A DNA stretch of 64,000 bases from Bacteroidota bacterium (GTDB lineage: Bacteria > Bacteroidota > Ignavibacteria > Kryptoniales > JAKASW01): contig JAMCXB010000017.1 in assembly GCA_023480735.1 (NCBI GenBank), forward strand, positions 1 through 64,000, read 5' to 3'. The notes under the pieces were generated by a model. It did no database searches. It saw only the letters and a list, made by a program, of their open reading frames with translations, and was not told the origin of the DNA. Shown piece after piece: positions 2,533 through 2,922 of this stretch. How positions within the stretch are numbered: the first letter of the stretch is position 1; each line of letters starts with the position of its first letter. A program made the translations under genes and the position numbers.

Positions 2533-2622
2533 TTGAAGTTCAATCCGATCTGTAATATCATTTCGAACTGATGATTTTATTGATTTTGATTGAAAGCTTC
2601 AAGTGTTGAAGATTCCTGCCGC

Positions 2623-2738
2623 GTAATGCCTCACTGAAAGGGTTATTTCTCTCGCAAAGGCGCCAAGAACGCAAAGAAATGTTGACGAGCGGTTCGCTTT
2701 GCGAGCGGCTTGGCGAGAAACCATAAGTGAGGGGTTAC
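2623..2738 (+). mobile_element. MITE copy 1 (116 bp), TIRs GTAATGCCTCACT.../...AGTGAGGGGTTAC, 8-bp TSD CCTGCCGC
   Basis: Near-identical to 44942-45057 and 51607-51730; flanks 2615-2622 and 2739-2746 are both CCTGCCGC. Confidence 0.93.
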
Positions 2739-2922
2739 CCTGCCGCGTCTGTTGGGCTCCGCTGCTACTTCAGCCCCGCATTTTTCCTTGATTATGTCCC
2801 ATCAGATTTGTAGAATATTGCCGGTTAAGTCAGAAGGGCATGAGATAACAATATGTCAGGGATATATGAATACTTGTTCTCCATGAGCCTGTTTTCTTGA
2901 TACTATTTCCGAATGGAGTCGT

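What the first reader, a model, noticed from the sequence alone, without database searches (positions are those of the whole stretch)
2615..2746. New MITE family: three near-identical elements with GTAA termini and perfect 8-bp target duplications (copy 1)
The 116-bp element at 2623-2738 begins GTAATGCCTCACTGAAAGGGTTATTTCTCTCGC and its other end, read inward, is GTAACCCCTCACTTATGGTTTCTCGCC, giving imperfect TIRs of about 27 bp. It is flanked by CCTGCCGC on both sides. Two more copies in the window are ~98% identical, each with a different exact 8-bp duplication, so transposition looks recent. The IS66 family characteristically has IRs beginning 5'-GTAA and makes 8-bp duplications, so I infer IS66-type mobilisation in trans. 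No IS66 transposase is present in the window. The internal GGCGCCAAGAACGCAAAG / CTTTGCGAGCGGCTTGGC segments can fold on each other, so most of the element can form one long hairpin.
Basis: partly seen in the sequence, partly recalled or inferred. Interest (0 to 1): 0.85.

Follow-up and report, generated by a model that had tools for sequence, protein, structure and literature searches.

The report
IS66-type miniature transposon, recently multiplied
A roughly 116-base piece of DNA with no genes has copied itself more than 50 times around one bacterial genome, almost certainly by borrowing the transposase of an IS66-type jumping gene, which makes it a clean but ordinary kind of parasitic DNA.

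Summary
The window holds three elements (116, 116 and 124 bp), each flanked by a different perfect 8-bp duplication. The whole 2.81-Mb assembly holds 57 left ends and 53 measured complete copies (104-125 bp). Of these, 36 have exact 8-bp duplications, 6 exact 9-bp and 5 one mismatch. A second species of the genus has about 18-20 more copies, one element identical to copy 1. About 80% of insertions are intergenic.

The IS66 inference is well supported but not closed. No IS66 transposase is assembled in the home genome; a right-end remnant of an IS66 element is. A same-genus genome carries an IS with ends GTAACCGCTCAGTTAC and 8-bp duplication, and another retains the IS66 transposase C-terminus next to that same end. 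Related IS66 elements carrying a DruA/DUF4338 gene in other phyla have GTAA ends and exact 8-bp duplications; one has GTAAAACCTCACTTAA ends. Among 378 GTAA sites in the window, the MITE left ends match the genus IS left end best. The exact parent was not found.

Corrections: copy 3 carries an 8-bp internal insertion (93% identity); length varies at one internal site; copy 1 is shared with the sister genome. Verdict: a new MITE family of a known kind.

The parts
2623..2738 (+). MITE copy 1, 116 bp, GTAATGCCTCACTGAAAGGG...GTGAGGGGTTAC
   Evidence: identical element in G002; same insertion site in G002
2615..2622 (.). target duplication CCTGCCGC, left of copy 1
2739..2746 (.). target duplication CCTGCCGC, right of copy 1
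44942..45057 (-). MITE copy 2, 116 bp, 98% to copy 1, A-to-T variant in right end (GTGTGGGGTTAC)
44934..44941 (.). target duplication GAAAAAAT of copy 2
45058..45065 (.). target duplication GAAAAAAT of copy 2
51607..51730 (-). MITE copy 3, 124 bp, with 8-bp internal insertion (GCTTTGCGAGCTCATATGCGGCTT), 93% to copy 1
51599..51606 (.). target duplication ACTGCAGG of copy 3
51731..51738 (.). target duplication ACTGCAGG of copy 3

Best explanation
This is a non-autonomous miniature inverted-repeat transposable element, about 104-125 bp long. It has imperfect terminal repeats GTAATGCCTCACTGAAAGGG / GTAACCCCTCACTTATGG around a hairpin core that codes for nothing. An IS66-family transposase supplied in trans, most likely by an IS66 element of the druA-carrying type seen elsewhere in the genus, recognises the GTAA ends and joins them to target DNA at 8-bp (sometimes 9-bp) staggered cuts. 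Gap repair then makes the target duplications. Shown: the ends, the duplications, the copy number, the intergenic bias, absence of two window copies from the sister locus, and the end similarity to genus IS66 elements. Inferred: the identity of the transposase, the chemistry, and that the parent was lost, lies in the unassembled fraction, or acted before or outside this genome.
For: 57 left ends and 53 complete copies in the genome. Duplications: 36/53 exact 8 bp, 6 exact 9 bp, 5 with one mismatch; all 36 exact 8-bp targets differ from each other. G002: 14/18 exact 8 bp. Insertion sites lie in an ORF of 120 aa or more in 10/51 cases against 82% of random positions in the same flanks. IS66 evidence: G002 IS with ends GTAACCGCTCAGTTAC, its copies breaking contigs 126-127 bp inside the element, one left/right pair matching as an 8-bp duplication CGCGCAAG; G009 has an IS66 transposase C-terminus followed by that same end; G000 C51 holds a remnant of that right end, 90% over 111 bp to G009. 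In GTDB genomes 64/79 DruA loci carry an IS66 transposase beside them, identified as PF03050 and NF033517 in two of them. About 24 Accumulibacter loci have 2.7-3.0-kb IS66-druA elements with GTAA ends and, but for one, exact 8-bp duplications. L178 has ends GTAAAACCTCACTTAA / GTAAAACCTCACTTTT. Against the genus IS left end, the three MITE left ends (16/23) are the best of 378 GTAA sites in the window, and a 143-bp relative in the same genome reaches 19/23. Published ISDge4 (IS66, ISBst12 group) has end GTAACTGCTCAGCA and an 8-bp repeat (PMC12898284).
Against: No IS66 transposase (PF03050) and no DruA (PF14236) is found in the home assembly; 12 of 13 genus genomes also lack a detectable IS66 domain. 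No autonomous element with ends identical to the MITE was found, including in viral contigs. The MITE interior does not match the IS66 ends seen; it resembles a CGCAAAG hairpin repeat that is widespread in the class. Six copies have 9-bp duplications rather than 8.
Confidence: 0.86

Rival explanations
1. The element is a MITE mobilised by a transposase of another family that also makes 8-bp duplications (for example IS256, ISAs1 or ISL3 types), the GTAA start being coincidental.
For: 8-bp duplications are not unique to IS66 (general knowledge); the parent transposase is not in hand.
Against: The match extends beyond GTAA: MITE left ends are the best of 378 GTAA sites against the genus IS66 left end, a sibling 143-bp element reaches 19/23, and an IS66-druA element elsewhere carries the CCTCACTTA motif. 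These other families were not searched for in the genome.
Confidence: 0.08
2. The element is a REP/BIME-like or other regulatory extragenic hairpin that spreads without classical transposition.
For: Strong hairpin, intergenic bias, and a core similar to widespread CGCAAAG repeats.
Against: Precise ends and unique 8-9-bp target duplications at most of the 53 copies, and absence of copies 2 and 3 at the collinear sister locus, are not expected for REP-type repeats.
Confidence: 0.03
3. The copies are older ancestral insertions kept alike by gene conversion rather than recent transposition.
For: Copy 1 and the C70 copy are shared with G002 at orthologous sites; an A/T variant combines with several length classes, as conversion or recurrent mutation would give.
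Against: Duplications are still perfect in most copies, and only two of 53 G000 sites match G002 sites along the whole flank; copies 2 and 3 are absent in G002.
Confidence: 0.05

Closest known systems
IS66 family, ISBst12 group (for example ISDge4, PMC12898284)
   Same: Ends GTGACTACTCAGCA / GTAACTGCTCAGCA, imperfect repeats with the CTCA motif, 8-bp duplication
   Different: ISDge4 is autonomous with a 449-aa transposase; the element here encodes nothing and its core is unrelated
druA-carrying IS66 elements
   Same: GTAA ends; 8-bp duplications in ACC003 and Peptococcaceae; SpSt-1156 has GTAAAACCTCACTTAA ends
   Different: 2.3-3.3 kb with transposase and DruA/DUF4338 genes; end sequences not identical to the MITE
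MITEAba12 (PMC6382973)
   Same: 113-bp bacterial MITE in many copies, near-perfect repeats, mobilised in trans, similarity to the parent confined to the ends
   Different: 9-bp duplications, AT-rich, co-resident parent ISAba12 known
MITEPsy1 (PMC3189936)
   Same: 100-nt MITE shown to move in vivo
   Different: 4-nt duplications with a specific target, probable parent ISPsy2 (listed as IS5?)

Membership tests
bacterial MITE | short (under about 300 bp), no coding capacity | tested here: met
   104-125 bp, too short for a transposase gene
bacterial MITE | terminal inverted repeats | tested here: met
   GTAATGCCTCACTGA / GTAACCCCTCACTTA, imperfect; fold z = -5.1
bacterial MITE | target duplications of constant length | tested here: met
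   36/53 exact 8 bp, 6 exact 9 bp, 5 one mismatch
bacterial MITE | many near-identical dispersed copies | tested here: met
   57 left ends in G000, about 18-20 copies in G002
bacterial MITE | co-resident parent with the same ends (usual, not obligatory) | tested here: inconclusive
   no PF03050 in the 90%-complete G000 assembly; only an IS66 right-end remnant; multi-copy IS are lost in such assemblies
IS66-derived non-autonomous element | ends begin 5'-GTAA | tested here: met
   all but a few of the copies
IS66-derived non-autonomous element | 8-bp target duplication | tested here: met
   a minority are 9 bp
IS66-derived non-autonomous element | ends match those of an autonomous IS66 element beyond GTAA | tested here: inconclusive
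   16/23 to genus IS, top of 378 sites; SpSt-1156 shares CCTCACTTA; no identical parent
IS66-derived non-autonomous element | moved by IS66 transposase | not testable with these tools
   needs a transposition assay
REP/REPIN repeat | dispersal without target duplication, linked RAYT transposase | tested here: not met
   duplications present; RAYT not searched

The most novel reading that the evidence does not exclude
The IS66-type ends have captured a hairpin core of the CGCAAAG repeat type that is scattered through the whole class, so IS66-type transposases may be what disperses some of those unexplained repeats, and the element's single internal site is hypermutable (14 length classes), perhaps through replication slippage on its hairpin.
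Probability: 0.25. Interest if true: 0.5.

Novelty: new member of a known kind. Interest (0 to 1): 0.36.

Why it matters
It is a well-populated, recently active MITE family with clean target duplications, tied to the IS66 family, whose mechanism is poorly characterised. I found no paper on IS66 MITEs in the held library. It also led to a broad class of IS66 elements carrying a DruA/DUF4338 gene, the family of the Druantia defence protein DruA.

Tried and rejected
Contig C52:1-133 of G000, with a GTAATACCTCACT end, was considered as the parent. Its homologues in G000, G002, G004, G009 and G011 begin 17-19 bases further in, so the repeat starts there and the GTAATACCTCACT stretch is not its end; I take it for an unrelated insertion sequence, IS21-like by appearance only. 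The IS at the start of C33 (L015) abuts a truncated MITE and is not its parent (family not identified). C14:140356 (GTAATCGCTCACTGA) is a different, 307-bp family also in G002. Most DruA loci in the same class do not have GTAA ends. A scan of viral contigs with a joint end pattern gave nothing. Searching papers for IS66 with DUF4338 or DruA gave no relevant paper. Matches of the MITE core across the class are to generic CGCAAAG hairpins without GTAA ends where I read them.

Full report
Observation. Copy 1 is exactly where described, 2623-2738, between two CCTGCCGC octamers. Copies 2 (44942-45057, minus) and 3 (51607-51730, minus) have GAAAAAAT and ACTGCAGG duplications on the + strand. The left 20 bases occur three times in the window against 0.01 expected. 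Copy 2 is 98% identical to copy 1; copy 3 carries 8 extra bases inside and scores 93%.

Genome scale. The window lies in a 2.81-Mb, 72-contig assembly, 90% complete. Fifty-seven left ends are found against none for the reversed-pattern control. I collected 53 complete copies. Thirty-six have exact 8-bp duplications, all different; six more have exact 9-bp duplications, five have one mismatch, and the rest are shifted, truncated or abut other mobile elements. Only 10 of 51 sites are inside an ORF of 120 aa or more, against 82% of positions in the same flanks.

Distribution. Among 201 genomes (the home genome and 200 relatives) full-length matches occur only in three genomes of the same genus: this one, G002 (including a 100% identical element) and G004 (one copy, 92%). 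In G002, 14 of 18 copies have exact 8-bp duplications. The best named protein match of a window gene is to 'Candidatus Kryptoniota' (80%), so the genus probably belongs there. G002 contig C3 is collinear with the window at about 72-84% identity over most of its length. There copy 3 is absent (one match spans the joined empty site) and copy 2 is absent (the alignment stops exactly at the element, though the other flank is also rearranged). Copy 1, in contrast, is present in G002 with the same duplication and 99.9% identical flanks over 1 kb, inside a 3.2-kb tract of 94% identity; I read this as recent exchange between the two lineages or a shared insertion. Near-identical elements in genomes whose genes differ by about 20% argue for recent activity or transfer.

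Variation. Nearly all length variation (104-125 bp, 14 classes in G000) sits at one internal position of the hairpin, between GCTTTGCG and GCTTGGC. An A/T variant in the right end occurs with the 112-, 116-, 120- and 124-bp classes alike, so either the indels or the substitution recur, or copies exchange sequence. An orthologous pair (C70 in G000, C26 in G002) with the same GGTCTGCG duplication differs chiefly at this site (118 against 121 bp), which suggests change in place. The mechanism, for instance slippage on the hairpin, is inference.

Which transposase. The home assembly has no IS66 domain and no DruA. In G002, however, seven places carry GTAACCGCTCAGTTA ends, six of them 126-127 bp from a contig end, as expected where a multi-copy IS breaks an assembly. 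One left flank and one right flank match as the 8-bp duplication CGCGCAAG; two other pairs match with a one-base shift (read). The seventh copy carries a DruA/DUF4338 gene (PF14236, 1.8e-36). In G009 the same end follows an IS66 transposase C-terminus. In the home genome a remnant of this right end survives at C51:21779 (90% over 111 bp to G009). So IS66 elements with these ends have been present in the genus and in this lineage.

A scan of GTDB genomes with a DruA alignment returned 79 loci; 64 (39 of 54 outside one Accumulibacter genome) have an IS66 transposase beside DruA. The two transposases tested are PF03050 and NF033517 members well above cut-off. In Accumulibacter ACC003 about 24 loci are 2.7-3.0-kb elements with ends GTAAGTATTCGGTGAACC and, but for one, exact 8-bp duplications; two Peptococcaceae elements show the same with GTAA..TTCA(G/C)T(G/A)AACC ends. 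In the arrangement with druA first, ends have the consensus GTAAnnnCTCAC, and one element has GTAAAACCTCACTTAA / GTAAAACCTCACTTTT; duplications were not seen for these, many of which lie on short contigs. Against the G002 IS left end, the three MITE left ends match 16 of 23 bases, the best of 378 GTAA sites in the window; a 143-bp relative in the same genome (C35:25570-25712), whose other end is identical to the MITE left end, reaches 19 of 23. A score matrix of druA-first ends places the MITE right end second among window sites, with one unrelated site higher, so this matrix alone is not decisive. Published ISDge4 of the ISBst12 group has GTAACTGCTCAGCA and an 8-bp repeat (PMC12898284); classical IS66 ends are such as GTAAGCGTCCGGCGAAC (PMC12888890).

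Conclusion. It is a MITE, with very high confidence; IS66-type mobilisation is the best reading, with the exact parent still missing. Its interior does not derive visibly from an IS66 element but resembles CGCAAAG hairpins common in the class, so it is not obviously a simple deletion derivative.

Noticed in passing
L112 (G002:C25), L177-L255: IS66 elements in many phyla carry a DruA/DUF4338 gene (PF14236), the family of the Druantia defence protein DruA, in two gene orders (druA before or after the transposase). No paper in the held library links the two.
   Followed up: partly
L064:146-264, L002, L021, L290, L308: A second MITE family of 119 bp with ends GGGTSTGCGACAAA and apparent 9-bp duplications; the GTAA MITE often sits directly beside it.
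   Followed up: partly
L122, L123, L115-L117, G000:C14:140356: A 307-bp family with ends GTAATCGCTCACT / GCAATGCCTC(A/C)GTTA in both genomes, plus 318-, 164-, 131- and 120-bp families with related GTAA ends in G002 and G004.
   Followed up: partly
G000:C35:25570-25712 (L150): A 143-bp relative with the same left end and CGCAAAG core but a different interior and a one-mismatch 8-bp duplication.
   Followed up: partly
window 1191-4356: This tract is 94% identical to G002 (99.9% around copy 1) while most of the rest of the collinear region is about 72-84%, suggesting recent exchange between the two species or a chimeric contig.
   Followed up: partly
L064:1-116, L170, L173, L175: A multi-copy insertion sequence in the genus that breaks contigs and sits directly beside a GTAATACCTCACT fragment in C52; family not tested.
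   Followed up: no
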